Of a DNA stretch of 64,000 bases, positions 2,907-64,000 are shown piece by piece; position 1 is the first letter of the stretch, and every line of letters begins with the position of its first letter. A model generated the notes under the pieces. The model was given only the letters and a program-made list of their open reading frames with translations, made no database searches and was not told the DNA's origin. Origin of the DNA: Streptomyces tubercidicus. Lineage in GTDB: Bacteria > Actinomycetota > Actinomycetes > Streptomycetales > Streptomycetaceae. The stretch lies in NCBI RefSeq assembly GCF_027497495.1, contig NZ_CP114205.1:3782001-3846000 (forward strand). The letters run 5' to 3'. The position numbers and the translations under genes were made by a program.

Positions 2907-2946
2907 ATGGGGGAGGGCTGGAGGAGGGCTGGGGGAGGGCTGGGGC
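2907..2946 (+). repeat. G-run repeat, possible G-quadruplex
   Basis: Three imperfect copies of GGAGGGCTGG give at least four runs of three or more G on the + strand. It lies in the convergent gap between the propeller gene and the MocR gene and may help end transcription. Confidence 0.5.
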
Positions 2947-3040
2947 CGGCCTGAAGCGGGCCTCGGTTTGATGCCCCGACGGGGCCCGGCCGTCCGGTCG
3001 CGGCGATCCGGGCGGGCCGAGGTGGTCCGGGCAGGACCCG

Positions 3041-3074
3041 GCGGCTCCGGGCGGCTCCGGGCGGCTCCGGGCGG
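3041..3074. repeat. 10-bp tandem repeat
   Basis: GCGGCTCCGG occurs three times in a row plus a partial fourth copy, just before the stop codon of the minus-strand MocR gene. Confidence 0.7.
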
Positions 3075-3079
3075 TCCCC

Positions 3080-4708: not shown

Positions 4709-4736
4709 CGGGCCATTGTCCCGGCACGGTGGGGGC

Positions 4737-5855: not shown

Positions 5856-5922
5856 AAGGGAAGGTTCCGGAAGTTTCCTCAGCTGATTTCCCCAACTCCT
5901 TTTCACAGGAGGGGAATCGGAG

Positions 5923-5948
5923 TATCTTGGAATAACCGTTCCAAGATA
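5923..5948. promoter_or_regulatory. Perfect palindromic operator of the TetR-peroxiredoxin operon
   Basis: TATCTTGGAA-TAACCG-TTCCAAGATA has perfect 10-bp arms and a 6-bp spacer, about 60 bp before the TetR start. It is markedly AT-rich for this genome, as expected for an operator overlapping a promoter. Confidence 0.85.
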
Positions 5949-6008
5949 AGGAGCGGGACCGACCAACCCAGCATTCCCACTCGTGACAGCGAAGCGAGCA
6001 GCCCGGCC

Positions 6009-7568: not shown

Positions 7569-7820
7569 ATGGCTCCGGACGAGGCCGTAATCGGCTGTAC
7601 GGGTGTGCTTCTGATCGGCACTCGTGGGGCTGCCGGTCCCGGTGAGGTCCTGGTGCGGATCAGGGGCGGCTCAGAGGCCTTTCTCGCCTGGTCCGCCGAG
7701 CCCCTTCCGGTAGGGGCGACCGTGCTCGTCATCGAGTCCCGTGGCAGTCGCCAGGTCGACGTCATGGAGTGGGCCGATCCGTTGGACGCGTTGACCGGCG
7801 AGGCCGGCGACGCAGGCTGA
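7569..7820 (+). CDS. NfeD-like OB-fold protein
   Basis: This 83-residue protein matches the soluble C-terminal OB domain of NfeD-type proteins: an early GCTGVLLIGTRGAAGPGEVLVRI strand pattern, split by AGPGEV, then a closing PVGATVLVIESRGSRQVDV. It has no membrane segment, unlike full-length NfeD. The start follows a strong GGGGGAGGG. It is 11 bp upstream of a flotillin gene; NfeD and flotillin are habitual partners in membrane microdomain assembly, which is the main support for the call. Confidence 0.7.
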   Translation: MAPDEAVIGCTGVLLIGTRGAAGPGEVLVRIRGGSEAFLAWSAEPLPVGATVLVIESRGSRQVDVMEWADPLDALTGEAGDAG

Positions 7821-7831
7821 GGAGATAAAGG

Positions 7832-9967: not shown

Positions 9968-11257
9968 ATGACGACTGCCGAACGTGTCGAGAGGGACGAG
10001 AGGGACGAGAGGGACGAGAGGGACGAGAGGGAGCAGGACACCGGGCCGGGCGTCAGTCGCCCCACCCCCACGCCCACCCCCGTCGCCGTTCCGGCCGCAC
10101 GGGCCACCGGTTGCCCCTTCGATCCGGCGCCCGACGTCCAACGGGCCCACCGGGAGGAGCCGATCACCCGGGCGACGCTGTGGGACGGCTCCTCCTGTTG
10201 GCTGGTGACCCGGCATCAGGACGTACGGGAGGTGCTCGGCGACCCGCGGTTCAGCGCCGATGCGACCCGCCCGGGATTCCCGTTCCTCTCGGCAGGCGCA
10301 AGTGAAGTCGCCGACAGCGCCCCGTCGTTCATCCGGCAGGACGACCCCGAGCATGCGCGGCTGCGCCGGATGCTCACCGCCGACTTCATGGTGAAGAAGA
10401 TGGAGGCGATGCGCCCCGAGGTGCAGCGCCTCGCCGATGAACTGCTCGACCGGATGACCGAGGGACGCGAGGCGGCCGACCTGGTCAGGGAATTCGCGCT
10501 GCCGCTGCCGTCCCTGGTGATCTGCCGACTGCTCGGTGTCCCCTACGACGACCATGAGTTCTTCCAGAAGCGCAGCGGCATCCTGCTCGGCCTCCACTCG
10601 ACGGCCGAGCAGGTGCGCACCGCACGGGAGGAACTGCAGGACTTCCTGCGCCAACTCGCCGAGTCCAAGCGGCGCGAGCCCGACGACGGCATCGTCAGCC
10701 GACTGGTCGCCCGCGGCGAACTCGACGACACGGCCATCGCCTCCATGGGACTGCTGTTGCTGGTGGCGGGCCATGAGACCACCGCCAACATGACCGCGCT
10801 GTCCACCCTCACCCTGCTGCGCAACCCCGACCAGCTGGCGCGGCTGCGCGCGGAGCCGTCGCTCATCAAGGGGGCCGTCGAGGAGCTGCTGCGCTATCTG
10901 ACGATCGTCCACAACGGGCTCCCGCGGGTCGCGGACGAGGACGTCACCATCGGCGGCCGCACCATCCGCGCGGGCGAGGGCGTGCTGTGCACGCTCAACA
11001 CCGCCAACCGCGACGAGGAGATCTTCCCCGGCGGCGCCGCACTCGACGTCGGCCGCGATGCCCGCCGTCATGTCGCCTTCGGCTTCGGCGTCCACCAGTG
11101 TCTGGGCCAGCCGCTCGCCCGGGTGGAACTGCAGATCGCCCTCGAAACGCTGCTGCGCCGGCTGCCCGGCCTGCGGCTCGATATCCCCTTCGAGGAGGTC
11201 CCGTTCCGTCACGACATGGGGATTTACGGGGTGCACGCCCTGCCGGTCGCGTGGTGA
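9968..11257 (+). CDS. Cytochrome P450, CYP105-like
   Basis: I chose the ATG at 9968 because GGAAGGA lies just upstream; the product is 429 residues. P450 signatures are all present: the I-helix AGHETTAN, the K-helix EELLR, and the heme loop FGFGVHQCLGQPLAR with the axial ligand C378. The overall wording resembles the CYP105 group, soluble monooxygenases that hydroxylate diverse xenobiotics and natural products. The N-terminus carries a 9-bp DNA repeat giving a DER-repeat acidic/basic stretch, probably disordered. A 3Fe-4S ferredoxin gene follows at 11380, but no reductase is adjacent, so electrons must come from a reductase encoded elsewhere, possibly the one at 50097. Confidence 0.92.
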   Translation: MTTAERVERDERDERDERDEREQDTGPGVSRPTPTPTPVAVPAARATGCPFDPAPDVQRAHREEPITRATLWDGSSCWLVTRHQDVREVLGDPRFSADATRPGFPFLSAGASEVADSAPSFIRQDDPEHARLRRMLTADFMVKKMEAMRPEVQRLADELLDRMTEGREAADLVREFALPLPSLVICRLLGVPYDDHEFFQKRSGILLGLHSTAEQVRTAREELQDFLRQLAESKRREPDDGIVSRLVARGELDDTAIASMGLLLLVAGHETTANMTALSTLTLLRNPDQLARLRAEPSLIKGAVEELLRYLTIVHNGLPRVADEDVTIGGRTIRAGEGVLCTLNTANRDEEIFPGGAALDVGRDARRHVAFGFGVHQCLGQPLARVELQIALETLLRRLPGLRLDIPFEEVPFRHDMGIYGVHALPVAW

Positions 11258-11825: not shown

Positions 11826-12257
11826 CTACCCCTCCGCCACCAACCCAGCATCAACCAACCCCTCCAACACCGCCTCGCCCAGCGCATGCACCGCGGACTG
11901 CGGCCGCACCATCACCGTGAACTCCTTGATCCGGCCCGCCTCGTCGAACTGCAGCAGGTCCATGCCGTGGATCTCCTTGCCGTTCACGGTGGCCCGGAAG
12001 ACCAGGACCGTGGAGTCGGCGGAGCCGCCGTCCGGGCCCGCCGCCGTCTGTGCGCTGCCCGTCAGCTCGCCGACGTAGCGGAAGTCCTCGAAGGTGCGCA
12101 GCAGCACCCCGAACAGCCCGAGCACCATCGGCCGCCCCTCGAAGGGCGTGAACTTCACCGGGCTGTAGAGACGGACGTCCTCGGTGAACAGCTCCTCCAC
12201 CGCGTCGAGTTCCTGTGCCTCCACCGCCGCCTTGAAGCGGTCCGCGGTCGTCCCCAT
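11826..12257 (-). CDS. SnoaL-like / NTF2-fold protein
   Basis: The 143-residue product starts MGTTADRFKAAVEAQELDAV, directly after an AGGAG site, and contains the SnoaL-like pattern: helices, then LFTEDVRLYSPVKFTPFEGR, VLVFRATVNGKEIHGMDLLQ and EFTVMVRPQSAVHAL. Members include small ligand-binding proteins, limonene-epoxide hydrolase relatives and polyketide cyclases. Catalytic residues cannot be assigned. It is divergent from a PadR regulator across a perfect 16-bp palindrome, so it is probably that regulator's target. Confidence 0.8.
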   Translation of the reverse strand: MGTTADRFKAAVEAQELDAVEELFTEDVRLYSPVKFTPFEGRPMVLGLFGVLLRTFEDFRYVGELTGSAQTAAGPDGGSADSTVLVFRATVNGKEIHGMDLLQFDEAGRIKEFTVMVRPQSAVHALGEAVLEGLVDAGLVAEG

Positions 12258-12336
12258 GACTCTTCTCCTCGCCCGGCCGGGCACTCGTCCGAGCGGCCTC
12301 GGCCCGCACCCCGGCCGCGGTGTGGACCTCGCCCTC

Positions 12337-12352
12337 CATAGTCGCGACTATG
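12337..12352. promoter_or_regulatory. PadR operator, perfect 16-bp palindrome
   Basis: CATAGTCGCGACTATG is fully self-complementary. A second imperfect palindrome, CATATTC-TT-GAGTATG, follows at 12359-12374. Both lie between the SnoaL-like gene and the PadR gene. Confidence 0.8.
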
Positions 12353-12390
12353 ATTAGTCATATTCTTGAGTATGGGAAGGGTGGCCGGTC

Positions 12391-12960
12391 ATGGCTCTCA
12401 GGCATGCGGTGCTGGCGGCGCTGCTGGACGGCGAGTTCAGCGGGTATCAGCTGGCCAAGGCGTTCGATGCCGGGGTCGCCAATTTCTGGCACGCACTGCC
12501 GCAGCAGCTCTACGCGGAGCTGACGAAGCTGGAGGCGGACGGGCTGGTGGCCGGCCGTCAGGTGATTCAGGAGACCCGGCCCAACAAGCGACTGTTCCAT
12601 GTCACCGACGAGGGCCTGGCCGAGCTGGAGCGGTTTGCGGCGACCGCGGCCAAGCCGTCGTTCATCCGCGACGACCTGCTGGTCAAGGTGCAGGCCGTGG
12701 ACCGGATCGACGCCGCGCCGGTGATCGAGCAGCTGACCGCGCGGGCCCGGACGGCGGCCGCCAAGGCCGAGATCCTCGAACAGCTGGCGGCACGGCTGCG
12801 CGGCGGGAGGGACGAGGCGGAGTTCCTGGCCCACGGCAGCCGGCTCGGCCCGTATCTGACCTGTCTGCGCGGTCTCGCCTTCGAACGGGAGACCCGCGAC
12901 TGGTGTGAGCGGAGCGCCGCCGTCCTACAGGCGCGGTACGACGACGGCGAGCAGTCCTGA
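12391..12960 (+). CDS. PadR-family transcriptional regulator
   Basis: The 189-residue product shows the PadR winged helix at its N-terminus (MALRHAVLAALLDGEFSGYQ, FWHALPQQLYAELTKLEADG, RPNKRLFHVTDEGLAEL), then the C-terminal helical dimerisation domain of the Vir_act_alpha_C type. PadR proteins repress phenolic-acid or multidrug genes and dissociate on ligand binding. GGAAGGG precedes the ATG. The divergent SnoaL-like gene and two intervening palindromes indicate local autoregulation. Confidence 0.9.
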   Translation: MALRHAVLAALLDGEFSGYQLAKAFDAGVANFWHALPQQLYAELTKLEADGLVAGRQVIQETRPNKRLFHVTDEGLAELERFAATAAKPSFIRDDLLVKVQAVDRIDAAPVIEQLTARARTAAAKAEILEQLAARLRGGRDEAEFLAHGSRLGPYLTCLRGLAFERETRDWCERSAAVLQARYDDGEQS

Positions 12961-13168
12961 GGCACACACGGCGGCCGCCCAGCAGCCGCGCAGCACACCG
13001 CACGCCCCACCAACGACAGACTCCACCAGCCACCCCGCGCACCAACCACCCAGCACAGCAATCGCACAGCGCGGCAACCGCAACTCCTTCGTGTGACGGC
13101 GCACATCACCGGGCGGAGGGCTGGGAAGCACACCTTCCGCATAGAACCGGAACGGAAGGAATGTCCGT

Positions 13169-13516
13169 ATGCGTCTCCGTCACACCGCCGCCACCGCCGT
13201 CAGTGCGCTCGCGCTCGCCCTGTCCCTGCCCGCCGCCCCGGCCGCCGCGGCCACCGGACCCTTCACGTACGTCTACACCGACCAGACCGGCACTCCCCAC
13301 GTGGGACTGCTGCCCGACCCGGTGAGCCGGGTGTGCATCACCCTGCCCGAAGTGGCCGACCCGGCCCTGCCGCCCGCGCACACCCCGAAGAACTACACCG
13401 CGTCCGTCGCCACGGTGTTCGCCGGCGTCGACTGCACCGGCGACTTCTTCACCCTCCGGCCGAACGGCGGCCATGGCTCGGAACGGCTGAAGGTCCGCTC
13501 GGTGGTCTTCTCCTGA
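13169..13516 (+). CDS. Small secreted protein of unknown function
   Basis: This 115-residue protein starts with a clear Sec signal peptide: MRLRHTAATA, a hydrophobic ALALALSLPAAPAAA core and a probable cleavage near residue 28 after AAA. The mature part of about 87 residues has two cysteines (VCITL and VDCTG) that probably form one disulfide, with beta-rich character. GGAAGGA lies 7 nt before the ATG. I do not recognise the family. It stands alone between the PadR and alcohol dehydrogenase genes. Confidence 0.75.
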   Translation: MRLRHTAATAVSALALALSLPAAPAAAATGPFTYVYTDQTGTPHVGLLPDPVSRVCITLPEVADPALPPAHTPKNYTASVATVFAGVDCTGDFFTLRPNGGHGSERLKVRSVVFS

Positions 13517-13726
13517 CCCGCGGCCGGTCGCCCACCACCGGCTGACGGCTGCCGCCGACCGCCCGGCGCCAGGCACCGGGCGAGGCCCAACAGCCGCTCG
13601 CACCCGCGCACCCGCGCCCCGCCCCCGCACCCCGCCCCCTGGGTGGTTCCGCCAGTACTAGGCACGCCATACATATGTTGAACTGGGCACTGGTTGGGCC
13701 ACCCGGAACGGCGCATCCTCGGTGGC

Positions 13727-14782
13727 ATGACCCACACCTCTGTCTCCGCGTACGCCGCACCCGCCCCGAAGGCACCGCTGGAGCGGATCACGATTCCGCG
13801 CCGCGAGCTGGGTGCCCACGACATCCTGATCGATATCAAGTACGCCGGTATCTGCCACTCCGACATCCACACCGTGCGCGCCGAGTGGGGCGACGACGGG
13901 GCCTTCCCGATCGTCCCCGGCCACGAGATCGCCGGTGTGGTCGCCGAGGTCGGCGCCGAGGTCACCCGCTACCGGGCGGGCGACCGGGTCGGCGTCGGCT
14001 GCTTCGTCGACTCCTGCCGGGAGTGCGCCAACTGCCTTGCCGGGCTGGAGCAGTACTGCACCGGCGAACTCGGCAACGTCGGCACGTACAACGCCACCGG
14101 CCGGGACGGTGAGACCACCTACGGCGGCTACTCCACCCACATCGTCGTCGACGAGAACTACGCCCTGCGCATCCCGGAGAGCATCCCGCTGGACGCCGCG
14201 GCGCCGCTGCTCTGCGCCGGCATCACCCTCTACTCGCCGCTCGCCCACTGGCAGGCCGGGCCCGGCAAGAAGGTCGCGGTCGTCGGCCTGGGCGGCCTCG
14301 GTCACATGGGCGTGAAGATCGCGCATGCGATGGGCGCGGAGGTCACCGTGCTGAGCCAGTCGCTGCGCAAGAAGGACGACGGTCTGCGGCTGGGCGCGGA
14401 CCACTACTACGCGACGTCCGACCCGGCCACCTTCGAGGAGCTGGCGGGCACCTTCGACCTGATCGTCAACACCGTCTCGGCCAACCTGGACCTGAACGCC
14501 TACCTCGGGCTGCTGCGCACCGACGGCACCCTGGTCCAGCTCGGCGCCCCGGAGAACCCGCTGCCGGTCGCGGCGTTCGCGCTGATCCCGCAGCGCAAGT
14601 CGATCGCCGGCTCGATGATCGGCGGCATCCAGGAGACCCAGGAGATGCTCGACTTCTGCGGCGAGCACGGGCTGACCGCGGACATCGAGGTCATCACCGC
14701 GGACCGGATCAACGAGGCGTACGAGCGGGTCATGGCCAGCGATGTGCGCTACCGCTTCGTGATCGACACCGCCACGATCTGA
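13727..14782 (+). CDS. Zinc-dependent NAD(P) alcohol dehydrogenase, YahK-like
   Basis: The 351-residue enzyme is an MDR-family dehydrogenase closest to YahK/cinnamyl alcohol dehydrogenases. Catalytic zinc ligands are C43 ([11 protein letters not shown]) with H66-E67 (VPGHEIAG). Structural zinc ligands are C97, C100, C103 and C111. The coenzyme loop is [20 protein letters not shown]. It should interconvert broad-range aldehydes and alcohols in the cytoplasm. I chose the second possible start, [12 protein letters not shown], because it matches the usual family N-terminus; an ATG/GTG-type start 33 bp upstream is also open. It appears monocistronic. Confidence 0.9.
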
Positions 14783-15102: not shown

Positions 15103-15636
15103 GTGAAGTCCACCCGTACCTTCCGCACCACTTCCGCCGCCCGGCCGTACAGCGCCCGCCCCCGTCTGCGCGGGGCGGCCGGCGCCGGGGTGGTCGCGGC
15201 GCTCGCGCTGGCCGCGCTGTCGGCCGGTAGCGCCCACGCCCAGAGCCAGGGGGCTCAGCCGCAGCACCCGTCCGGCGGTCAGGCGAGCGCCTCGCCCGTC
15301 CCGCAGCCCACGCCGCCCAGCGGCCCCACCGAGGAACCCACGCCGCCCAGCACCGGCACCCCGGAACCCACCGCGCCGCCCACCGCCCCGCCGTCGGCCG
15401 GCCCGACCCGCCCGGGACCGCAGCCGACCGACGCCCCGACCGACGCCCCGCCGCAGCCCAGCTCCACACCGGCCTCCCCCGGCAAGCCGGCCCCCGCCTC
15501 CGGGAAGGGTGACGGGAAGGAGCTCGCGCGCACCGGCGCCTCCTCCGGGACCACCCTGGCGATCGGCGGCGTCGCGGCGGCCCTGATCGCCGCGGGTGGC
15601 GGCACCGTCTACGCGGTCCGCCGCCGGCGCGCCTGA
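15103..15636 (+). CDS. LAXTG-anchored Pro-rich cell-wall protein (sortase E substrate)
   Basis: I chose GTG at 15103 because GGAG lies 9 nt upstream. The 177-residue product has a signal peptide (basic start, then VVAALALAALSAGSAHA) and a Pro/Ser/Thr-rich stalk of about 90 residues full of PTPPS-type repeats. A C-terminal sorting signal follows: LARTG at about 141-145, a hydrophobic segment and the charged tail RRRRA. LAXTG is the motif used by Streptomyces class E sortases. It should be covalently attached to peptidoglycan. There is no globular domain, so it is mainly a spacer or decorated surface stalk. An ECF sigma gene follows 35 bp downstream. Confidence 0.8.
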   Translation: MKSTRTFRTTSAARPYSARPRLRGAAGAGVVAALALAALSAGSAHAQSQGAQPQHPSGGQASASPVPQPTPPSGPTEEPTPPSTGTPEPTAPPTAPPSAGPTRPGPQPTDAPTDAPPQPSSTPASPGKPAPASGKGDGKELARTGASSGTTLAIGGVAAALIAAGGGTVYAVRRRRA

Positions 15637-55828: not shown

Positions 55829-56548
55829 ATGACCTCCACCCACCCCACAGACCACCCCGCTCACCCCCCGGCACGCCCCCTCCACCTCATCGCGGTCGCC
55901 GGCAACAGCCCCGGAGTCGGCAAATCCACCCTCTGCCACTCCCTGGCCGACTGGATGAGGAGCACCGGAGCCACCGTCGACCACTTCGAAGAGGCCGACA
56001 TCCTCACCCGCCCCGCCTTCCGCCCGGTCGCCGAGGAGTTCGCCAACGGCTCCCACAGCGTCCGCCCCGAGACCCTGGTCGCCGCCACCCACGCCTACCT
56101 CACGGAGTCCCGCGCCGCCGGCACCGACGTCCTGGTCACCGACGCCCTGCTCCCCTTCATCCCGTCCCTGGTGGCCTGGGGCCACGACGAGCCCACCATC
56201 GCCCGGTTCCTGGGGGAGTTGGCCACCGCCGTCGAACCGGCCCGGGTGACCGTGGTCTACGTACAGGACGACCCCGCGACCGCACTCCAGCGCGCCGTCG
56301 ACCGCGAGGGCCCCGACTGGGAGAACTGGTACGTCACCAAGCTCGCCGCCTCCCCCGGCACCCGCTCCGTCCACGACCTCCCCTCGGCCGCCGCCCACCT
56401 ACGCCACGAAACCGCCCTGACCCACCGCCTACTGGCCGCCACCCTCTGGAAGGTCCTCCCCGTAGACGTCGCCGGCCTCGACGCCCACCAAACGGCCCAG
56501 CACGTCCGCCACCACCTAAGGGCTGCCCTCACAAACGCCACCCCCTGA
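55829..56548 (+). CDS. P-loop nucleotide-binding kinase-like protein
   Basis: The 239-residue product has a Walker A motif VAGNSPGVGKSTLCHSLADW at about residue 25, a Walker-B-like TDVLVTDALLPFIPSLVAWG, then RVTVVYVQDDPATALQRAVD and a C-terminal VDVAGLDAHQTAQHVRHHLR. This pattern fits a uridine-kinase or phosphotransferase-like P-loop family; the substrate is unknown. No ribosome binding site is visible. Its 3' end abuts the truncated caspase-like pseudogene, so it lies at the edge of the rearranged accessory DNA. Confidence 0.75.
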   Translation: MTSTHPTDHPAHPPARPLHLIAVAGNSPGVGKSTLCHSLADWMRSTGATVDHFEEADILTRPAFRPVAEEFANGSHSVRPETLVAATHAYLTESRAAGTDVLVTDALLPFIPSLVAWGHDEPTIARFLGELATAVEPARVTVVYVQDDPATALQRAVDREGPDWENWYVTKLAASPGTRSVHDLPSAAAHLRHETALTHRLLAATLWKVLPVDVAGLDAHQTAQHVRHHLRAALTNATP

Positions 56549-56906
56549 CGACGCACAAACGACCACCGCAGCGAGGTGTACTCGCGCTCACGGTCCGAAT
56601 CGGGCAGTGCGAGATAGAGCTCGTCGGTGTGCGGGTCCGTGAGCCCGTGCCCGGCGTAGTAGATGAGCAGCGTGTCCCGAGCCTTACGGGCCCGCTCCCG
56701 TACGGTGTCCAGCACCTGCCCGGCACTACCGGGCTGCGAGAGCACCGTGCAGGCTTCATCCGGCAGCCCCACACCGCCGGATCCGTCAACGCCTCCCGCA
56801 GCCCCACCAGATTCCGGGCGACCGCAGGCAGCTTCTCCAGGTTGACGTAGTCATGGACCCCCACCAATACGGCCTCCGACCGGCCCGGGTCCGACAGAGC
56901 GGCCAC
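56549..56906 (-). pseudogene. Caspase-like (peptidase C14 / CHAT-type) effector, frameshifted and truncated
   Basis: From GTG 56906 the frame gives SEAVLVGVHDYVNLEKLPAV and REALTDPAVWG. The protein then continues in another frame as LPDEACTVLSQPGSAGQVLD and KARDTLLIYYAGHGLTDPHT, ending at about YTSLRWSFVRR. Joining the two frames needs one base restored in a G-run at about 56774-56778. The caspase catalytic His motif YYAGHG is present, but the catalytic Cys half is missing because the sequence runs into the kinase 3' end. It starts 2 bp after the EACC1-like stop, so the two were one operon. It can no longer be an active protease. Confidence 0.75.
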
Positions 56907-56908
56907 CG

Positions 56909-57337
56909 CTACCCGCGCTCTCCCCCCCTCGCCCCCGAACCAGGCGCACCGCCCTCGTCCCCCTGATCCCTCTCCCCCTCACTCCACACCCGCAAAATCC
57001 GCTCCACCGCCTCGGGAGAGCCATCCTGCAACGTCACCACCACACCATCCCGCTCCAGCCGGATCTGCGGCGGCCGCGCCCGCGAACCCCGCCAAGTGGC
57101 CACAGCGGTCACCAGGCTCCCCAACGCAATGCTGTTGGACAGCACCACATTGACGAGCTCCAGCCCCCCGCCCATCTGCCCCGGCTCCGACGGCTCCGCC
57201 TCCAGGGACACCCCCGCCTGCCCCCGCAACTCAGGCTCATCCACCAACCATCGATACAACGAAACCGCCCCCTCAACCCCCTCCGCCCCATCCCCAACCG
57301 ACACCGTGACCTCCACCGCCCAGCCCCCTTCCGCCAC
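56909..57337 (-). CDS. EACC1-type effector-associated component
   Basis: The 142-residue protein (AEGGWAVEVTVSVGDGAEGV start, ELRGQAGVSLEAEPSEPGQM, LELVNVVLSNSIALGSLVTA, PPQIRLERDGVVVTLQDGSP) matches my recollection of effector-associated constant component 1, a small two-helix or membrane-like module found beside caspase, trypsin and NTPase effectors in actinobacterial conflict systems. The segment VVLSNSIALGSLVTAVATW is hydrophobic and may insert in the membrane. It appears intact although its caspase partner is broken. Confidence 0.65.
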   Translation of the reverse strand: MAEGGWAVEVTVSVGDGAEGVEGAVSLYRWLVDEPELRGQAGVSLEAEPSEPGQMGGGLELVNVVLSNSIALGSLVTAVATWRGSRARPPQIRLERDGVVVTLQDGSPEAVERILRVWSEGERDQGDEGGAPGSGARGGERG

Positions 57338-58177
57338 CTCAACTCCCGCCCCACATCATAGAAAGCCCACTCCCGCAACAGCTGTGGTTTCCCAGGGCTG
57401 CACCGAGCCCCGGAACACCCCGCCCCACCGCACGCGGCCACGTGGCGCCGCTGCCGCCACCAGGGCCACGGATCACGCACCCCTACCGCCGCCCTTTCCC
57501 GAAGCCCCCTCCGGGCGTAGGGGCGTGGTGCGACTGTTCCTCCTGAGCCTCCGGATGACCGGCAGCGCGCTAAGCCAGACAGATGAGTGGCGATTTAGGC
57601 CATTCGGAGTATCGTTCTGGTGTCGGAGAGTGAACGCTCCTCTGACCTCAGTGACGAAGACGCCTCGGGGGATGCGCGCTCCCCGCTCGCGAGGCCGGCA
57701 CCAAAGGAGCTTCGACCTCCCGTGGTACAGGTTCCCCACCGTCTCAACGAACTGGCGACAGATGCGCATGCCGCAGCCCACCGCGGGAAGGTGGGCGCCT
57801 GATGGTCGGCAAACCGCTTGCCCCGTCATCCCACCCGAACAAGGAAGTCCGGGCTGTCCTGACGAAGTGAGTGGACGCGGGTTGGATCTTGCACGAGGCG
57901 AGCCATTGGGGGACTCTCTGGTGCACCTGCGAGTCCCAGTGCACGTCGATCCCAGTCTCTCGCACCCCGCGGAATGCAGGGACACACGCGCGACGCATCG
58001 ATCGACTTGCGTCCCGTTGCCCACTACCCCCAGATGCCGCCCACCGCAGCCTGGCGGGACGCCCCCGCAAAGAGTGAGAGCCTGGACACCGGTTCGACTT
58101 TGTCCCAATTTGGGGCGCTTTACCTGTTGACGAACGACAACATCTCTGCGACGGTGTAGACGACTCCAGGGGGCATC
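57338..58177. other. 840-bp region without a supported gene
   Basis: GC content is lower than in neighbouring genes and codon-position bias is absent in all frames. Near its right end is a short palindrome CCCAA-T-TTGGG at about 58106, followed by TTGACG, a probable promoter zone for the gene at 58178. It may contain decayed mobile DNA. Confidence 0.5.
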
Positions 58178-59095
58178 ATGGACTACGACTTCACCTTCAT
58201 CGTGACAGGCGTGACAGTTGAGGATGCCGACGCCGTCGAGAGTCTTTTCGACACCTTGGACGCCACCCTCGCGAAGGCCGGCGGCCAGCACATGGTGAGC
58301 ATCACCATGGACGGCCCCCGCGCAGTGGATGCCGCGCTTCACGCGGCCACGGCTCTTCGCGAATGCGTGCCAGGGCTGCGCGTGATCAGGCTGGACCGTG
58401 ACCTGGTGGGCATCCCTGAGATCAGTGAGCGCACAGATCGGTCCAGGCAAAACGTTGCACAGTGGGTCGCGGGTGAGCGCAAGGCTGAGCACGGGCCTTT
58501 CCCTGCACCCGAGGGAGTAGCAGGACGCACTCAGGTCTGGCTGTGGACAGAAGTCAATGCGTGGCTGCGTAAACACGGCATGGGGGACACCGACGTCGCC
58601 TACCCCAGCCGAGAAGAGATGACGGAGATCGATTTCGCTCTCGCCAATGCGGTTTCCTTGACGTTCAAGTACGCCCCTACGCTCGGCTTCGACGAGGGCC
58701 GGCAGACCGTCGTCCGCGAATTGCAGCGACGCCACATGCCCAAACTCGTCAAGGTGCTGACGGGTAGCCAGACGCTGGACCAGAACGGTCGGCATGTCGT
58801 CCTGGTGGCGGACCAGCACGAACCCGCTGACGCTGTGATGAAACGTGTGGCTGACTTCGACCACGGCGTGATGCTGGTGACCATGACCGACCAGTTCGTG
58901 GGGGCCGAGCTCTCGACACAGGAAGACGCCAGCCCGTCGCCAGAAGTGGTTTCGGTTCCAACGACCGCAACCGTAAGAGACTGGTTCGAGCTAGCGCTTG
59001 AACACCCCGGAGCCTCTTTCACTCCAGGCGGGATGGAACGCGCAGAGCCGCATCCAGCCCCCGTGAAACAGCTGCTACTTGCTGCAGCCGCCTGA
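58178..59095 (+). CDS. Unfamiliar protein with ACT-like N-terminus and AlpA/excisionase-like HTH
   Basis: The 305-residue product begins MDYDFTFIVTGVTVEDADAV, an alternating strand/helix pattern like an ACT or small sensor domain, ending in the HTH-like GIPEISERTDRSRQNVAQWV at about residue 80. The basic GERKAEHGPFPAPEGVAGRT and WLWTEVNAWLRKHG follow, as in phage AlpA/excisionase winged helices. The C-terminal 170 residues show no recognisable fold. A role as DNA-binding regulator or recombination factor fits the accessory context. AGGGGG precedes the ATG. I do not know its function. Confidence 0.75.
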   Translation: MDYDFTFIVTGVTVEDADAVESLFDTLDATLAKAGGQHMVSITMDGPRAVDAALHAATALRECVPGLRVIRLDRDLVGIPEISERTDRSRQNVAQWVAGERKAEHGPFPAPEGVAGRTQVWLWTEVNAWLRKHGMGDTDVAYPSREEMTEIDFALANAVSLTFKYAPTLGFDEGRQTVVRELQRRHMPKLVKVLTGSQTLDQNGRHVVLVADQHEPADAVMKRVADFDHGVMLVTMTDQFVGAELSTQEDASPSPEVVSVPTTATVRDWFELALEHPGASFTPGGMERAEPHPAPVKQLLLAAAA

Positions 59096-59236
59096 AGCGC
59101 ATCACGGAACACCGCGCCGACGCCGGTCAAGAAGCCATCACCCAGCCAGCAGGGGACCGAACCGGAGAAGGGCCGCTCGCCATACCTCCCCAGCGCTCCG
59201 CCTTCGACGGCATGGGGAAGGCAAGGCGATGGCTTC

Positions 59237-59623
59237 TCACGTATGCCGAGACCAGAAGGCGACGAACGCGATGTAAGCGATGGCGGCGGTGGCCACGAAC
59301 CAGAAGTAGGGATCGCCGCTCCTTCCAGATGCCAGCTCACCGATGAAGGCGCAGATATTCCCCACGGTAAGGACCACGCCCGTGCCGGCCCAGGCACGCC
59401 CTCCGATCCGGGCGAAGCGCTCGTCGGGTTCCTTCTCGGTGAGCCCCTGATACGTCTCGCTCCGGCGCCCCAGCAGCACTAACGCAAGACTGCAGACCGC
59501 CAGAACCCCGAACGCCACCAGGCCGATGACGAGGCGCCCGCCGAAAGCCGAGGCCACGAGGCAGGCACCTCCGAGGACGAGGAAGAAGCCGGGAACGGAC
59601 CACCTGGCCGTGTTACCGGTCAT
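59237..59623 (-). CDS. DUF2178-like small membrane protein
   Basis: I chose ATG 59623, which overlaps the upstream XRE gene by 11 nt. The 128-residue product MTGNTARWSVPGFFLVLGGA has four predicted spans (CLVASAFGGRLVIGLVAFGV, AWAGTGVVLTVGNICAFIGE, FWFVATAAIAYIAFVAFW) and a polar loop with EKEPDERFARIGGRA, the DUF2178 signature. Its pairing with a small XRE regulator is a widespread arrangement; the function is unknown. Confidence 0.85.
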   Translation of the reverse strand: MTGNTARWSVPGFFLVLGGACLVASAFGGRLVIGLVAFGVLAVCSLALVLLGRRSETYQGLTEKEPDERFARIGGRAWAGTGVVLTVGNICAFIGELASGRSGDPYFWFVATAAIAYIAFVAFWSRHT

Positions 59624-59825
59624 CTGCTGGGCTCTCATCGACATGAAACATCTCCTCAACGCTGACCTCGAAGAACTTGGCCAAGGACAAGGCGAGCGGC
59701 AGCGAAGGTGTGTACCGCTCGGTCTCGATGGCGTTGATCGTTTGCCGTGAGACCCCAAGGGCCGTACCTAGCTGCCCCTGAGAGAGCTTTCGCGACGACC
59801 GCAGTTCCCTGACACTGTTTCGCAC
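59613..59825 (-). CDS. XRE-family (HTH_3) regulator
   Basis: The 70-residue protein MRNSVRELRSSRKLSQGQLG is a single helix-turn-helix (TALGVSRQTINAIETERYTP, LALSLAKFFEVSVEEMFH), the compact YozG/ArpR-like type. A 14-bp inverted repeat centred 25 bp upstream of the start is the likely operator. It is translationally coupled to the DUF2178 gene (overlap 11 nt). Confidence 0.93.
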   Translation of the reverse strand: MRNSVRELRSSRKLSQGQLGTALGVSRQTINAIETERYTPSLPLALSLAKFFEVSVEEMFHVDESPADDR

Positions 59826-59827
59826 GT

Positions 59828-59873
59828 GTAAAGCTTACTTGTCACCTTCCCTTTAGTGTCAAGCATGCTTTAC
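59828..59873. promoter_or_regulatory. XRE operator: 14-bp inverted repeat
   Basis: GTAAAGCTTACTTG (59828-59841) and CAAGCATGCTTTAC (59860-59873) are inverted with 12 of 14 matches. They flank the AT-rich promoter of the XRE-DUF2178 operon. Confidence 0.75.
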
Positions 59874-59879
59874 ATTCCT

Positions 59880-60164
59880 TCACCCGGGGCCGGCGCGTGG
59901 TCCGAAGTCCATCTCGTCGTGGGTGAGTTCGCGATGCGGTGACTGTGCCCGTTCGCCACCGCCTGGCACGGCAGGGCCGTCGAGCAGCACACCGGCCGCA
60001 CCCGTGCCCCCCGCCTCAGCCGTTCACCACAAGGCGCCGATGAGAGGTGACGGCAACCCGTCGGACGATGACGAGGGCACGGCTGGTGTTCCGGTAGCCA
60101 TCTGATCGGCGTCACGCCGGCTGCCTGAAGCGGTTGCCGTCAATCACCGCCGTCAAGAGAAACA
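59880..60164. other. Intergenic region, possibly decayed coding DNA
   Basis: It contains a short open frame ending in DDDEGTAGVPVAI on the + strand (about 60040-60105) without a ribosome binding site or codon bias. No supported gene. Confidence 0.4.
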
Positions 60165-60200
60165 CCAGAGGCCCCGTTCGATATCGAACGGGGCCTCTGG
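60165..60200. terminator. 36-bp perfect palindrome, tRNA terminator
   Basis: CCAGAGGCCCCGTTCGAT is followed directly by its reverse complement. On the minus strand it lies right after the tRNA-Arg 3' fragment, as the original tRNA terminator would. Confidence 0.85.
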
Positions 60201-60207
60201 CCTGCTG

Positions 60208-60249
60208 TGCGCTCGGCAGGATTCGAACCTGCAACCTTCTGATCCGTAG
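60208..60249 (-). other. tRNA-Arg 3' fragment (attachment site, displaced side)
   Basis: On the minus strand the segment CTACGGATCAGAAGGTTGCA, AGGTTCGAATCCTGCCGAGC is the 3' part of tRNA-Arg(ACG), from the anticodon loop to the acceptor end. The 5' half is absent. This is the usual footprint of a site-specific integrase: an intact tRNA is rebuilt at the far end of the element, here to the right and beyond the window, while the old 3' end stays behind beside its terminator. Confidence 0.8.
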
Positions 60250-60769
60250 CTCTGAAGAGATCGGTCATTGGAGGTCATACAGGCTGCCGGGAGGACCATG
60301 AGAGCCGGAGTCGGGCGCTGCCGGTTGCTGGGGTTGCTGTACTTCGTTGCTGTACCGGAGCGAGGCACCGCCGCTCCTCCGGGTGCCGGACCGTTGTCAG
60401 TGCTGCTTGCTGGTTTCCCTGGTGGAGTGAGACCGGTCAGAGAACCTTCGAGGTCCGGCGGCTCCGTTCACACCCGTTCGGGGCACCAGTAAAACCCGCA
60501 GGTCGCACGAGTTTGAACGCTGGTGCACGAAGGTGAATGAGACGGAAATTGAGAAGGAGCCGGATCGGAGTCTCGTCCCTCAGCTGAGGGGCTTACTGAT
60601 CGTTTCAGAATGCCTTGCGGAGCCGGCGGAGGCATGCGACGCCACATGCCAGGGGTGGCTGCCTAGGCAAACATTCGGTCTGAGTTGACTAGTTGAAGTC
60701 CTGACCGAGGCTCCGTCAGCACCATACGATATTGCCTAGGTGCCTGGATCGACCGCGCGGGGGAGAGAA
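60250..60769. other. 520-bp region without a supported gene
   Basis: No frame has Streptomyces codon bias. GC is lower than average and several stop codons lie in all frames. No integrase or excisionase fragment is recognisable. Confidence 0.5.
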
Positions 60770-61195
60770 GTGGAAGAGACCGGCAAGGTGTCAGGGTGGC
60801 TCGGCGTCGCGGCGGCGGTCGTAGGGTTGCTGGCGTTCTTCGGCATCACCAATGTCGATGAGCTTCAGCGCAAGCTCAACCCGGATTCGACGAACGCAGC
60901 CGCCTGCAAGAGAGCCGACCAGGCCTACAAGTCCTACCAAGAGGTAACTATTTACAGCAGTAAAGCAGGAGCGGCACGCGCCTATGCCGAGGAGCTTCGG
61001 CATGTCGTATCCGCCACTGATAACGAAGAGCTGCAAGCTGCTTTTCGCGCCAACATCACCTCCTCGGAGCTCTACGCCCAAGCTCGCGACAGTGAGGCGC
61101 CCTACCTGGATCGGGTCAAACTCGGCGTCAAGATCATCACGGACCGAGGCGCATGGAGATCACTCTGCGGTGAACTGGAGAAGGAGTCCGGGTGA
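60770..61195 (+). CDS. Small membrane-anchored protein of unknown function
   Basis: I chose GTG 60770, with GGGGGAGAG 2-8 nt upstream; GTG 60740 is also open. The 141-residue product has one N-terminal span (VSGWLGVAAAVVGLLAFFGI) and a soluble helical domain of about 105 residues with three cysteines (ACKRADQAYKSYQEV; SLCGELEKE). The pattern of Glu/Arg/Ala helices suggests a coiled-coil outer or inner domain. I do not recognise it. It lies inside the probable integrative element. Confidence 0.65.
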   Translation: MEETGKVSGWLGVAAAVVGLLAFFGITNVDELQRKLNPDSTNAAACKRADQAYKSYQEVTIYSSKAGAARAYAEELRHVVSATDNEELQAAFRANITSSELYAQARDSEAPYLDRVKLGVKIITDRGAWRSLCGELEKESG

Positions 61196-61940
61196 GTAGG
61201 CGGGGCAGACACAGCTCGACGAAGCACTCGGCATGTGTGCAGACGCCGAGTGCCTGCTGGCCGGTCTCGCGACCAGCATCGCGACTCAGGACCCTCAGGG
61301 CAGGTGGGCGATCGGCAACTGGTTCTCTGACCCTCTACAACGTTCTGGTTGGGTCAACGATGGGAGAGAAGAACGATATGGGAAGCAGCTGTGGGGCTCG
61401 GCGGACCGATGGACGTTTCGATGAAATGGCATCCCCTGCGCCGAGGACGTCGCAACATCACTGACAGCTCCACAGGTTGGTATCCCCGGCGCCGCGATGC
61501 ACGATGCTGTCGACCGCGTGAAGGTGCGGTTGGGGTTCGCGATGCTCAGCCTGCACGGACGTCGAGCACCGCTCCAGCAGACGCTGGGACAGTCCTCATG
61601 AGCTGGCACAACGTGACGCTGGTGATCTTTGCTGCTTTTTGGCTGCGCCATGCTGCTACTGACGCAGATCGCCGAGGTGCTGTCTAAGCTTCCTGAGGTC
61701 ATCCGCGCTTGGCGTGAGGTACGGCGCGCCATTCAAGCAGGGCTTGATTATCTCCCCGAAGTCGAGGGCTCGCGAGGCTGTGACAACCCCACCCCTGACT
61801 CTTGTGGTGGGAGACGCCCCGAGGCCGTCACTGCGCCTGACAGGCCGAGCCGAGGGCGGCACACAAGAGTCCGATGTCAGACGGAACACAGGTAGGTCCG
61901 CTAACTTTGCTGTGCGCTGAAACACGGGGCTCAAGACCCA
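61196..61940. other. Degenerate region with possible gene fragments
   Basis: A fragment reading DPQGRWAIGNWFSDPLQRSG (about 61290-61350) looks protein-like but has no start site. At 61599-61760 a membrane-like peptide MSWHNVTLVIFA continues as LLTQIAEVLSKLPEVIRAWR only after a one-base shift in a T5 run (61632-61637). Both suggest decayed genes. No intact gene is supported. Confidence 0.45.
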
Positions 61941-62696
61941 CTAACGACTGATGGGGATCTCGTAGACGATCTCGCACAGAGCGGCGGGAACGATGATGTC
62001 CGCCGTCTCCACGGGCCGCCCCTCATCGCTGTAGTACGTCCGCCGGATGTGCGTGACCAGGCCGGCCTTCTGGATGCCGAGGAGTGACGCCTCCTCGGCA
62101 TTCGCTTGCCGCGGCTCCGGCTGCTCCACAGCGTGGCTCACCGTGACGCCGATCTCGGCCATACGGTTCACCACGCCCACCCCGGCGTGCGGCCCGCCCT
62201 CCGGGAGGACGACGAGCGTGCCGGCGGTGAGGTCGTACGGCTCCCAGCTCGTCGACAGCTGCACCGGCTTGCCGTCGGCGAGGAACTCGTACACGGTGCG
62301 GACGCACAGCTCACCCTCGCCGATACCGAGGCGTGCCGCGATCTCAACCGGCGCCGGGACCTTCGCCTCGGTCCGGCTCTCCCAATCCCCCAACTTGCCC
62401 ACGGCCTTCATGTCCGCGCGGAACGGGGAACCGTCAGGCTGCTCGCGCGCCGAGGAGCGGACCATGCGTACGCGCTGACGAGCGGCGGCAACGTACGTGC
62501 CGGATCCGGCGCGACCTTCCAGCGCTCCCTGAGAGATCAGTAGCTCTTGGGCGCGACGAACCACGTTCTCGCCGACGCCGCACTCCTGGGCGATCTGGGC
62601 GCGTGACGGGAGCCGGTCTCCCGGCGCCCACTCATGCTCCGCGATCCGGCGCCGGAGCTCGTCAGCGATGCGGAGATACGGCGGCTGCTCAGGCAT
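61941..62696 (-). CDS. GntR-family regulator with UTRA domain (KorSA-like)
   Basis: The 251-residue product begins MPEQPPYLRIADELRRRIAE and has the GntR winged helix (WAPGDRLPSRAQIAQECGVG, NVVRRAQELLISQGALEGRA) and a UTRA ligand domain (GIGEGELCVRTVYEFLADGK, GLVTHIRRTYYSDEGRPVET, ADIIVPAALCEIVYEIP). In Streptomyces integrative plasmids such as pSAM2, a regulator of this type represses transfer and excision genes. Two 12-bp palindromes lie just upstream. It is divergent from the small-gene string at 62775, its likely target. Confidence 0.9.
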   Translation of the reverse strand: MPEQPPYLRIADELRRRIAEHEWAPGDRLPSRAQIAQECGVGENVVRRAQELLISQGALEGRAGSGTYVAAARQRVRMVRSSAREQPDGSPFRADMKAVGKLGDWESRTEAKVPAPVEIAARLGIGEGELCVRTVYEFLADGKPVQLSTSWEPYDLTAGTLVVLPEGGPHAGVGVVNRMAEIGVTVSHAVEQPEPRQANAEEASLLGIQKAGLVTHIRRTYYSDEGRPVETADIIVPAALCEIVYEIPISR

Positions 62697-62706
62697 ATGG
62701 AAAATC

Positions 62707-62737
62707 TAGTCCACTAGCTCTAATCTAGTTAACTAGC
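62707..62737. promoter_or_regulatory. Paired GntR operators
   Basis: CTAGT-CC-ACTAG (62707-62718) and CTAGT-TA-ACTAG (62726-62737) are palindromes with identical arms, 19 bp apart, in the AT-rich gap between the GntR gene and the divergent small genes. Confidence 0.9.
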
Positions 62738-62774
62738 TTTACTGCAAGTGATCGTCGATGACGGAGGCTGCCCT

Positions 62775-63053
62775 GTGCCTGCTTCGGAATTAAGAGCCGA
62801 AGGCATCGCAGCCCGGCTGTCCGCCGTCGGCCTCACCCCGCGCGTGGAGCAGCACGCTCAAGTCACGTCGATCGAAGCGGAGGTACCGGAATCGCTCTCC
62901 GCCGAGTCGTGGCGGGAGGTCTTGGAAGCAGTGGCGGAGGCCGATCGATTCGGGCTCGTCGCCAACAGCTTGAACGGCCGCACCTTTTGGGCCGCCGTAC
63001 ACACAGCGGCCCCCGCGACGGGCGATGTCCGGGGGCCTGGCTATCAGCGATAG
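62775..63053 (+). CDS. Small protein, first gene of a string in the integrative element
   Basis: I chose GTG 62775, with GGAGG 6 nt upstream. The 92-residue product begins with PASELRAEGIAARLSAVGLT, continues RVEQHAQVTSIEAEVPESLS, and ends RTFWAAVHTAAPATGDVRGP. The alternating strand/helix pattern suggests a small alpha/beta fold. I do not recognise the family; similar proteins occur next to GntR regulators in Streptomyces integrative elements as I recall. Confidence 0.75.
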   Translation: MPASELRAEGIAARLSAVGLTPRVEQHAQVTSIEAEVPESLSAESWREVLEAVAEADRFGLVANSLNGRTFWAAVHTAAPATGDVRGPGYQR

Positions 63054-63065
63054 GAGCTGATCAGC

Positions 63066-63218
63066 ATGTTCAACCGTATCCGCCAGACCGTCGGGCACAC
63101 CGATGAGCGGTGCGTTCCGATGAGTCGACACCACCGGTTCTCAGTACCTATCGGACCGGCTGGCACACCTCGCGATCGCGTTGCGCGCCACCGGTTCACG
63201 CTGGCGGAGGCGCTCTGA
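63066..63218 (+). CDS. 50-residue basic peptide
   Basis: The frame MFNRIRQTVGHTDERCVPMS ends RHRFTLAEAL. AGGAG lies 8 nt before the ATG, and its stop overlaps the next start (TGATG). It is rich in Arg and His, with a PxGPAGTPR turn. Its function is unknown, but tight spacing on both sides supports that it is translated. Confidence 0.65.
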   Translation: MFNRIRQTVGHTDERCVPMSRHHRFSVPIGPAGTPRDRVARHRFTLAEAL

Positions 63219-63418
63219 TGCCTCCCCAGCAGTTCCGCGCGCCCCACACGAAGGTCGTTCCCTACCAGTCGAGTTCCTGCCTGATCGGTAGGCACTGCGA
63301 GTGCGCGCACTCCTCTCCCGCTACCGCGCCGATCGGCGTCCCCGTGATCTACGAGGCGTGCAGTTGCTCCTGCCACACGGTGGCCGACTGCGGCAACCCA
63401 ATGGACGGCCCCCGGTGA
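63218..63418 (+). CDS. Cysteine-rich small protein, possible zinc-binding
   Basis: The 66-residue protein MPPQQFRAPHTKVVPYQSSS has the spaced cysteines SSSCLIGRHCECAH and EACSCSCHTVADC. Seven cysteines and several histidines suggest a zinc ribbon or knuckle that could bind nucleic acid. Its ATG overlaps the upstream stop (TGATG) and its stop overlaps the next gene (GTGA), so it is cotranslated in a string of four. Confidence 0.7.
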   Translation: MPPQQFRAPHTKVVPYQSSSCLIGRHCECAHSSPATAPIGVPVIYEACSCSCHTVADCGNPMDGPR

Positions 63419-63678
63419 GGGGCTGGGTTCCGGGTACTGCACCGGCCGCCTCCGTCGAGATCACCTCTGCCACCGTGCAGCGCGGCGACGTCATCCAGAT
63501 CGGCGGCCACCCGTGTCGTGTGACCGACCTGCTCCAGCTTCCCGGCGGAGCGAAGCGTCTGTGTTTCGAGTCGGGCGAACTGCTGACCATGCACTCCCGG
63601 TCTCGGCTCGTAGCCGTACGCACGCTGAAAGGTGGTGATGCAGTCCGTGCCTTCTCGCCGTCACGTCATCGCCGATGA
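63415..63678 (+). CDS. Small beta-rich protein
   Basis: The 87-residue product (GTG start overlapping the previous stop by 4 nt) has GDVIQIGGHPCRVTDLLQLP, GAKRLCFESGELLTMHSRSR and VAVRTLKGG. The beta-barrel pattern resembles the small N-terminal barrel of EF-P or a KOW-like module. Its end overlaps the downstream GntR gene by 41 nt in another frame. The function is unknown. Confidence 0.65.
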   Translation: MRGWVPGTAPAASVEITSATVQRGDVIQIGGHPCRVTDLLQLPGGAKRLCFESGELLTMHSRSRLVAVRTLKGGDAVRAFSPSRHRR

Positions 63679-64000
63679 CATTCGGAACACGATCTCGACC
63701 GGTCAGATCAAGGCTGGCGAATGCCTCCCTTCTGAAGCGCAGCTCGCTTCTCGCTACGCGGTAAGCACGGCAACGCTGCGGAGTGCCCTCTCGGTTCTCC
63801 AGGGCGAAGGGCTCGTCGAGAAGATTCACGGCAAGGGCAACTTCGTCCGTTACCCGCTCCGCAGAATCACCTACATCGGTGGTGCTTGCACACCCCGGAC
63901 GGAGCCCTCCTTCGGTTCGGCGTTACGCGTCAGCGTGCGTACCACCATCCTCCGTGCGGACAGTCAACTGGCCGGCCTGCTGGGGGTGTCGTCACGTAGC
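63638..64000 (+). CDS. GntR-family regulator (partial, C-terminus off the window)
   Basis: The visible 121 residues (MQSVPSRRHVIADDIRNTIS, GQIKAGECLPSEAQLASRYA, VSTATLRSALSVLQGEGLVE, KIHGKGNFVRYPLRR) form a GntR winged helix followed by the beginning of a UTRA-like domain (VRTTILRADSQLAGLLGV). AAAGGTGG precedes the ATG. The gene ends the string that starts at 62775 and runs off the right edge. A second GntR so close to the first is notable. Confidence 0.9.
   Translation, partial: MQSVPSRRHVIADDIRNTISTGQIKAGECLPSEAQLASRYAVSTATLRSALSVLQGEGLVEKIHGKGNFVRYPLRRITYIGGACTPRTEPSFGSALRVSVRTTILRADSQLAGLLGVSSRS

What the first reader, a model, noticed from the sequence alone, without database searches (positions are those of the whole stretch)
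60165..64000. Integration footprint at tRNA-Arg; an integrative element extends right
A tRNA-Arg 3' end without its 5' half sits beside its perfect terminator palindrome, in minus orientation. By the logic of 3'-end integration the intact tRNA should be rebuilt to the right, outside the window. GntR regulators and small genes right of it fit the element's control region.
Basis: partly seen in the sequence, partly recalled or inferred. Interest (0 to 1): 0.65.

Follow-up and report, generated by a model that had tools for sequence, protein, structure and literature searches.

The report
Mobile element in an arginine tRNA
A 13.6 kb Streptomyces DNA element of a well-known self-transferring kind sits in the one intact copy found of an arginine-tRNA gene and rebuilds that gene at its far end, right beside what looks like the stump of an older element that used the same site; ordinary in kind, but neatly readable.

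Summary
A 43-nt tRNA-Arg 3' piece at 60207-60249 (-) lies in a 52-bp tract (60198-60249) that recurs identically 13,557 bp to the right, outside the window, in an intact tRNA-Arg(acg), the only intact copy found. Between them lies an actinomycete integrative and conjugative element (AICE) of the pSAM2 type: integrase, Xis, RepSA, FtsK-type Tra, a DUF2637 protein, Pra, NUDIX, three GntR regulators and an HNH protein. In 68 of 68 named loci with an integrase at least 75% identical, the same tRNA-Arg core follows int.

One correction: the palindrome is probably not the tRNA's original terminator. The 160 bp left of the junction match the right end of a second AICE lineage: last codons of its integrase, arm-type repeat, hairpin. 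An older element was probably here first and is mostly gone. Stacking of AICEs at tRNA-Arg is published (PMC9513070, PMC3218068), so this is a new member of a known kind. The oddest detail is Arg where this integrase lineage should have its first catalytic His. Excision, transfer and regulation are inferred, not shown.

The parts
60037..60105 (+). Last 22 codons and stop of the integrase gene of a probable older AICE (lineage 2), the rest lost
   Evidence: In-frame DGNPSDDDEGTAGVPVAI* against the C-terminus of a lineage-2 integrase (weak as protein, E 0.81) and DNA alignment; DNA 60030-60164 matches 12 of 24 loci chosen for that integrase, E 9e-22 to 1.2e-7
60132..60156 (+). Putative arm-type integrase-binding repeat of lineage 2: one exact TGCCGTCA and one near copy, 13-nt period
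   Evidence: alignment. Within 400 bases after int, TGCCGTCA occurs twice in 11, once in 5, not in 8 of 24 lineage-2-type loci. Role inferred
60165..60200 (.). Perfect 36-nt palindrome, terminator-like, probably brought by the older element
   Evidence: -37.5 kcal/mol for 60161-60201, minus strand; same position between arm repeat and tRNA as in lineage-2 right ends
60198..60249 (.). attL core: 52-bp tract identical to attR (window-equivalent 73755-73806)
60207..60249 (-). 3'-terminal 43 nt of tRNA-Arg(acg)
   Evidence: 100% over tRNA positions 32-74
60332..60355 (+). Putative arm-type repeat of the resident element (GGTTGCTGTACTTCGTTGCTGTAC), far arm of attP
   Evidence: 23 of 24 identical to the copy between int and attR; TGCTGTAC beside the upstream core in 27 of 29 related loci with a second core. 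Role inferred
60740..61195 (+). ORF of 151 aa, unknown, inside the element
   Evidence: no Pfam or NCBIfam match
61629..61895 (+). ORF of 88 aa, unknown, inside the element
   Evidence: no Pfam or NCBIfam match
61941..62696 (-). GntR/UTRA regulator 1
   Evidence: PF00392 1.4e-16, PF07702 4.9e-17
62748..63053 (+). ORF of 101 aa, unknown
   Evidence: a 71% relative in 1 of 80 integrase loci (L063; these loci hold at most 10 kb upstream of int)
63110..63678 (+). Two small ORFs, unknown; relatives in 2 of 80 integrase loci (L014, L063)
   Evidence: same limit of 10 kb
63632..64000 (+). GntR/UTRA regulator 2, running on to window-equivalent 64378
   Evidence: (ORF): PF00392 3.7e-17, PF07702 1.1e-14

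Best explanation
The footprint is attL of a 13,557-bp AICE of the pSAM2 type. Shown by sequence: an identical 52-bp core at both ends, a truncated tRNA at the left, an intact tRNA-Arg(acg) at the right, and repSA, xis and int genes that overlap end to end next to attR. [quoted passage not shown] The element's core copy replaced the tRNA 3' half, and its int-side arm supplied a new terminator, so the tRNA kept working. A KorSA-like GntR probably holds itself and pra off through shared ACTCATGTAC sites. When this is lifted, Pra would switch on repSA-xis-int, the element would excise and replicate, and the FtsK-like Tra would move double-stranded DNA to a neighbour. The DNA just left of attL is most likely the right-hand stump of an earlier AICE with a different integrase that had used the same tRNA gene.
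For: att copies and spacing. Intact tRNA at the right, no second intact copy found. Genes: int PF00589 3.3e-15 and PF14659 6.3e-11, RepSA PF20199 5.3e-147, FtsK_SpoIIIE PF01580 1.8e-45, DUF2637 2.9e-22; Xis TIGR01764 32.6 bits against cut-off 28.8 and Pra NF051478 143.2 against 80; NUDIX and three GntR/UTRA. Gene overlaps. Operator-like sites, one before the KorSA-like gene and two before pra. Lineage and site: 88 of 110 integrase loci have tRNA-Arg(acg) as first tRNA downstream, opposite strand (the two sets overlap in species and include the own locus); 68 of 68 named loci with integrase at least 75% identical have the core there and a hairpin beside it with z below -2. Older stump.
Against: No excision, replication or transfer data. 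Arm sites and operators are repeats, not footprints. The transfer protein matches NCBIfam's TraB model with only 21 bits against a cut-off of 800, and the GntR proteins match no NCBIfam model above its cut-off, so 'Tra' and 'KorSA-like' rest on domain and gene order. Xis stays just below the Pfam HTH_17 cut-off (26.4 against 27). The integrase has Arg in place of the first catalytic His, which could mean weak activity, though its lineage shares it. The 151-aa and 88-aa ORFs and the HNH protein had no match in the 80 integrase loci, but those loci hold at most 10 kb upstream of int.
Confidence: 0.93

Rival explanations
1. The element is a fixed, no longer mobile relic that only keeps its ends.
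For: Related loci often look shortened or broken: an upstream core only 2.3-6.5 kb away in 14 of the 29 loci with a second core (some of these could be stacked cores), and partial integrase matches. Published work reports that AICEs decay (PMC9513070, passages).
Against: The reading frames are open and int, RepSA, Tra domain, DUF2637, Pra and Xis pass a family cut-off; the core ends are identical over 52 bp. G+C is 66.7% in the element against 71.4% in the first 40 kb of the window, as for a fairly recent arrival.
Confidence: 0.15
2. The DNA left of attL, palindrome included, is the native chromosomal flank of the tRNA gene, and lineage-2 elements captured such a flank in their attP.
For: Nine matches start at query positions 277-282, that is, they hold a similar repeat and hairpin beside a tRNA-Arg core, in several genomes away from an adjacent lineage-2 integrase. 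In one relative with no integrase match at 1e-60 (G036) the tRNA is followed by a hairpin almost like the one at own attR, so arm and flank types do get exchanged.
Against: The match continues into the stop and last codons of an integrase gene, in frame; 12 of 24 loci chosen for that integrase match 60030-60164 at E below 1e-6.
Confidence: 0.12
3. The element is a prophage or satellite rather than a conjugative element.
For: Tyrosine integrase and tRNA site are shared with phages (1082 phage records match the integrase, all below 60% identity).
Against: RepSA, FtsK-type Tra, DUF2637 and Pra are AICE genes, and the Pfam and NCBIfam scans of the ORFs I chose show no phage structural gene (PHROGs not run). 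The best listed phage integrase is 32% identical.
Confidence: 0.02

Closest known systems
pSAM2 of Streptomyces ambofaciens (AICE prototype)
   Same: RepSA-type initiator, xis, int, Pra family protein, GntR regulator, FtsK-like Tra, NUDIX protein, tyrosine integrase, tRNA 3'-end site (pSAM2 features from PMC8584621 and PMC3218068 passages)
   Different: Other integration site (tRNA-Pro for pSAM2, recalled); three GntR genes; own cargo; pSAM2 sequence not compared here
pSAM3 of S. ambofaciens DSM 40697 (PMC4891641, passages)
   Same: AICE in a tRNA-Arg gene with int, xis, repSA, tra, spd, pra; shown there to excise and circularise
   Different: 18,965 bp, 21-bp repeats; sequence not compared
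Sav3708/Sav3728 of S. avermitilis (named in PMC3218068, passage)
   Same: Two AICEs with integrases of two sub-families, one after the other in a tRNA-Arg gene
   Different: Two elements are listed there; here only a stump of the second lineage is left; sequences not compared
tRNA-Arg accretion site of a Streptomyces population (PMC9513070, section 13 read)
   Same: One to three AICEs of different families plus an ancient remnant at one tRNA-Arg
   Different: Other strains; sequences not compared
AICE-like element in S. inhibens NEAU-D10 (L011)
   Same: 96% identical integrase, same site, cores 11,153 bp apart
   Different: Other genes 31-73% identical or not found, apart from Xis at 92%: same integration module, different body

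Membership tests
AICE (actinomycete integrative and conjugative element) | Integration in a tRNA 3' end with direct repeats | tested here: met
   52-bp repeats, tRNA-Arg(acg) intact at the right
AICE (actinomycete integrative and conjugative element) | Integrase next to an att site, and excisionase | tested here: met
   PF00589, PF14659; TIGR01764 above cut-off, HTH_17 just below
AICE (actinomycete integrative and conjugative element) | Replication initiator | tested here: met
   PF20199 RepSA 490.9 bits
AICE (actinomycete integrative and conjugative element) | FtsK/SpoIIIE-type transfer protein | tested here: met
   PF01580 1.8e-45; NCBIfam TraB model itself not reached, 21 of 800 bits
AICE (actinomycete integrative and conjugative element) | Spd spread proteins | tested here: inconclusive
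   DUF2637 protein 2.9e-22 and a 102-aa ORF without a Pfam match; the name Spd is recalled
AICE (actinomycete integrative and conjugative element) | Excision, autonomous replication, transfer as double-stranded DNA | not testable with these tools
   Needs cultures
pSAM2-type regulation | Pra activator gene | tested here: met
   NF051478 SCO3933 family, 143.2 bits against 80
pSAM2-type regulation | KorSA repressor acting on its own and the pra promoter | tested here: inconclusive
   GntR/UTRA gene just upstream of pra; ACTCATGTAC at L008 7614, 8482, 8518; not compared with KorSA, binding not tested
pSAM2 itself | Same integration site (tRNA-Pro, recalled) | tested here: not met
   Site is tRNA-Arg(acg)

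The most novel reading that the evidence does not exclude
This AICE integrase lineage works with an altered active site: the first histidine of the catalytic set is arginine (RNTRHT instead of HDLRHT) throughout one well-supported clade. Competing integrase lineages take turns at one tRNA-Arg gene, each bringing its own arm repeats and its own terminator for the tRNA, so the flank can be read as a record of who came before.
Probability: 0.3. Interest if true: 0.45.

Novelty: new member of a known kind. Interest (0 to 1): 0.3.

Why it matters
A half tRNA beside a hairpin, read by eye, correctly predicted a whole mobile element and a rebuilt tRNA 13.6 kb away. The two-layer junction suggests a simple way to read past occupancy of a hot spot: arm repeats and integrase stumps name the earlier element. 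The integrase lineage with Arg in place of the first catalytic His is a ready test of how much that residue matters.

Tried and rejected
A phage origin was considered and dropped. Plasmid relatives were sought: the integrase is below 60% identity in all 128 matching PLSDB records, and the best RepSA is 85% over 88% of the query in Streptomyces sp. JCM17656. The DNA 57500-60037 was searched in 291 Streptomyces genomes to tell chromosome from element; 9 (own included) match at 1e-20, in separate pieces, so where the older element ended on its left is not known. No further tRNA-Arg piece was found left of attL in the window. PADLOC gave nothing for five of six element ORFs tried and JetC at 0.0044 for the 151-aa ORF, taken as chance. 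The arm motif was first tried as TTGCTGT, found twice in only 1 of 68 loci; TGCTGTAC, taken from the repeat, was then used (counts), so the motif was settled after seeing the loci. A paper search for tRNA-restoring terminators in attP listed one paper, on a Streptococcus genome, not opened; one for histidine changes in tyrosine recombinases listed six papers, of which I saw passages of one. The count of stacked sites (17 of 61) was made by hand, where six candidates per genome were scored, so it is a lower bound.
Full report
What was checked. The window is bases 3,782,001-3,846,000 of a single 8,284,047-base contig. At 60207-60249 on the minus strand stand the last 43 bases of a tRNA-Arg, without the 5' half; ARAGORN lists no tRNA-Arg in the window. 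To its left is a perfect 36-base palindrome, 60165-60200.

The other end. A search of the same genome finds the segment again 13,557 bp to the right, same strand. The longest identical tract is 52 bp, window 60198-60249, equal to window-equivalent 73755-73806. There ARAGORN finds an intact tRNA-Arg with anticodon ACG on the minus strand. A search of the genome with that tRNA gives six matches: itself (74 of 74), the 43-base piece at attL, a 77% match over positions 6-74 that is probably another tRNA, and three shorter, imperfect pieces. No second intact copy was found; no genome-wide tRNA scan was made. So the tRNA 3' end was duplicated by integration and the intact gene stands at the right, as predicted.

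What lies between. From left to right (L008 coordinates; add 58,999 for window-equivalents): ORFs of 151 and 88 aa; GntR 1 (2942-3697, -); small ORFs; GntR 2 (4633-5379); a 115-aa ORF; an HNH_5 protein (5895-6680; 2e-10); a NUDIX protein (7164 to about 7640, -; 3.3e-19); GntR 3 (7638-8429), here called KorSA-like; Pra (8569-8925; NCBIfam SCO3933 family, 143.2 bits against a cut-off of 80); an FtsK/SpoIIIE protein (ending 10283; 1.8e-45); a DUF2637 protein (10313-11032); a small membrane-like ORF; RepSA (11840-13258; 5.3e-147); Xis (13255-13464; TIGR01764 above cut-off); and a tyrosine integrase (13452-14687), which ends 77 bases before the tRNA. repSA, xis and int overlap end to end. This is the gene set of an actinomycete integrative and conjugative element of the pSAM2 type. 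NCBIfam's own TraB model is not reached (21 of 800 bits), and the GntR proteins reach no NCBIfam cut-off. That KorSA represses itself and pra, and that Pra activates repSA, xis and int in pSAM2, is stated in PMC8584621 (passages). That NUDIX proteins such as Pif give conjugal immunity is stated in PMC3218068 (passages). Here ACTCATGTAC stands once before the KorSA-like gene and twice before pra, once inside a 22-base perfect palindrome. The regulation is inferred by analogy and shared sites, not shown.

How the integrase lineage behaves elsewhere. Of 110 loci carrying relatives of the integrase (80 named genome contigs and 30 from the same-genus search, overlapping in species and including the own locus), 88 have tRNA-Arg(acg) as first tRNA downstream on the opposite strand; 12 have none within the stretch examined, 3 Ala, 3 Phe, 2 Thr, 1 Pro, 1 Val. 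I then kept the 68 of 80 named loci with integrase at least 75% identical (12 dropped). All 68 have the tRNA core just downstream of int, and 29 also show a second core upstream within the stretch held. In the arm between int and core, TGCTGTAC occurs twice in 63 and once in 5 of 68; the motif of the other lineage (TGCYGTCA) in none. Beside the upstream core TGCTGTAC occurs in 27 of 29. In all 68 the 60 bases after the tRNA end fold better than 100 mononucleotide shuffles (z from -2.30 down, median -5.34). I read this as each element bringing its own terminator for the tRNA it rebuilds; termination itself is not shown. Gene content beside these integrases varies: of 80 loci, Xis was found in 63, RepSA in 60, Pra and Tra in 46 each (at most 10 kb upstream of int held).

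The older layer. A joined empty site used as a query against 100 genomes matched, in four Streptomyces (G006, G058, G002, G025), 150 or so bases left of attL together with the tRNA. In G058, G002 and G025 an integrase gene about 44% identical to the resident one ends just there. Alignment shows why: window 60037-60105 reads as the last 22 codons and stop of such an integrase gene, followed by a repeat like theirs (one exact and one near TGCCGTCA) and a GC-rich hairpin, in the order found at the right end of those elements. As protein alone the tail is a weak hit (E 0.81). Without the tRNA and the palindrome, 60030-60164 matches 12 of 24 loci chosen as relatives of that integrase at E 9e-22 to 1.2e-7; the other 12 do not match. 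In those 24 loci TGCCGTCA occurs twice in 11, once in 5 and not at all in 8. Among the 80 loci, 7 match 60030-60197. In five of them (L031, L043, L052, L054, L068) the match ends 9-30 bases left of the resident lineage's upstream core, the same order as here; in L043, L052 and L054 it spans only about 50 bases, repeat and half of the hairpin. In L062 it lies about 4.6 kb right of the core, and L087 carries a second-lineage integrase itself. Against this reading: nine matches hold a similar repeat and hairpin beside a tRNA-Arg core, not always near such an integrase, and one genome with no integrase match (G036) has a hairpin almost like the one at own attR, so flank and arm sequences have been exchanged.

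Stacking at the site. Counting by hand, 17 of 61 Streptomyces genomes (own included) have at least two tRNA-Arg cores within 25 kb; G030, G056 and G057 have three or four. This is a lower bound. Published work already describes stacking: one to three AICEs plus an ancient remnant at one tRNA-Arg, with integrases 39-88% identical (PMC9513070, section 13 read); Sav3708 and Sav3728 in tandem in tRNA-Arg with integrases of different sub-families (PMC3218068, passage); and pSAM3 in tRNA-Arg, shown to excise (PMC4891641, passages). That several integrase lineages share one site agrees with PMC9513070.

An odd active site. In the resident lineage the box that is HDLRHT in the second lineage reads RNTRHT: 64 of 64 readable integrases of the 68 loci (4 unreadable). 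In a tree of 85 integrases (of 106 loci given; short or broken ones dropped) the 53 with RNTRHT form one branch with support 100/100; 49 of them sit at tRNA-Arg(acg), 2 at tRNA-Thr(tgt), 2 with no tRNA found. [quoted passage not shown] I saw no statement about arginine in those passages or in the listing, which is a thin search. The meaning for activity is unknown.

Verdict. The finding is right and ordinary in kind: a complete-looking, probably mobile AICE in the tRNA-Arg hot spot. What is added is the exact element, the intact tRNA at its far end, and the likely stump of an earlier element of another lineage at the junction.

Noticed in passing
L008:13452-14687 (window-equivalent 72451-73686): The integrase has Arg352 where the first catalytic His is expected (RNTRHT), conserved in 64 of 64 readable relatives of its lineage and forming one clade.
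   Followed up: partly
L009:12116-12158, 12660-12709 and 15529-15554 (genome 3.897-3.901 Mb): Decayed tRNA-Arg 3' pieces, a piece like the resident element's left end and an arm-like repeat, with ORFs between them that read like a transposase (my reading of the translation): remains of a related element about 41 kb right of attR.
   Followed up: partly
L010:9968-10013 (genome 4.471 Mb): Another decayed tRNA-Arg 3' piece; by eye its flank resembles that at L009:12116.
   Followed up: no
window 58178-59095: 305-aa protein whose residues 1-136 match a candidate phage-defence family, PDC-M06B, at 4.6e-12, just left of the tRNA-Arg junction.
   Followed up: no
window 56260-57337: EACC1 protein (3.1e-27) beside two overlapping ORFs without a Pfam match that I read as a frame-shifted effector gene, between tRNA-Met and the tRNA-Arg junction.
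   Followed up: no
window 59224-59874: Segment with an XRE regulator gene and an overlapping downstream ORF, 87-90% identical in 4 of 291 Streptomyces genomes; in G018 and G060 it lies on contigs other than their tRNA-Arg hits (draft genomes), so the pair itself may move.
   Followed up: no
L119, L120: Integrases 73-75% identical to the resident one sit at tRNA-Thr(tgt), a change of target inside the same RNTRHT clade.
   Followed up: no
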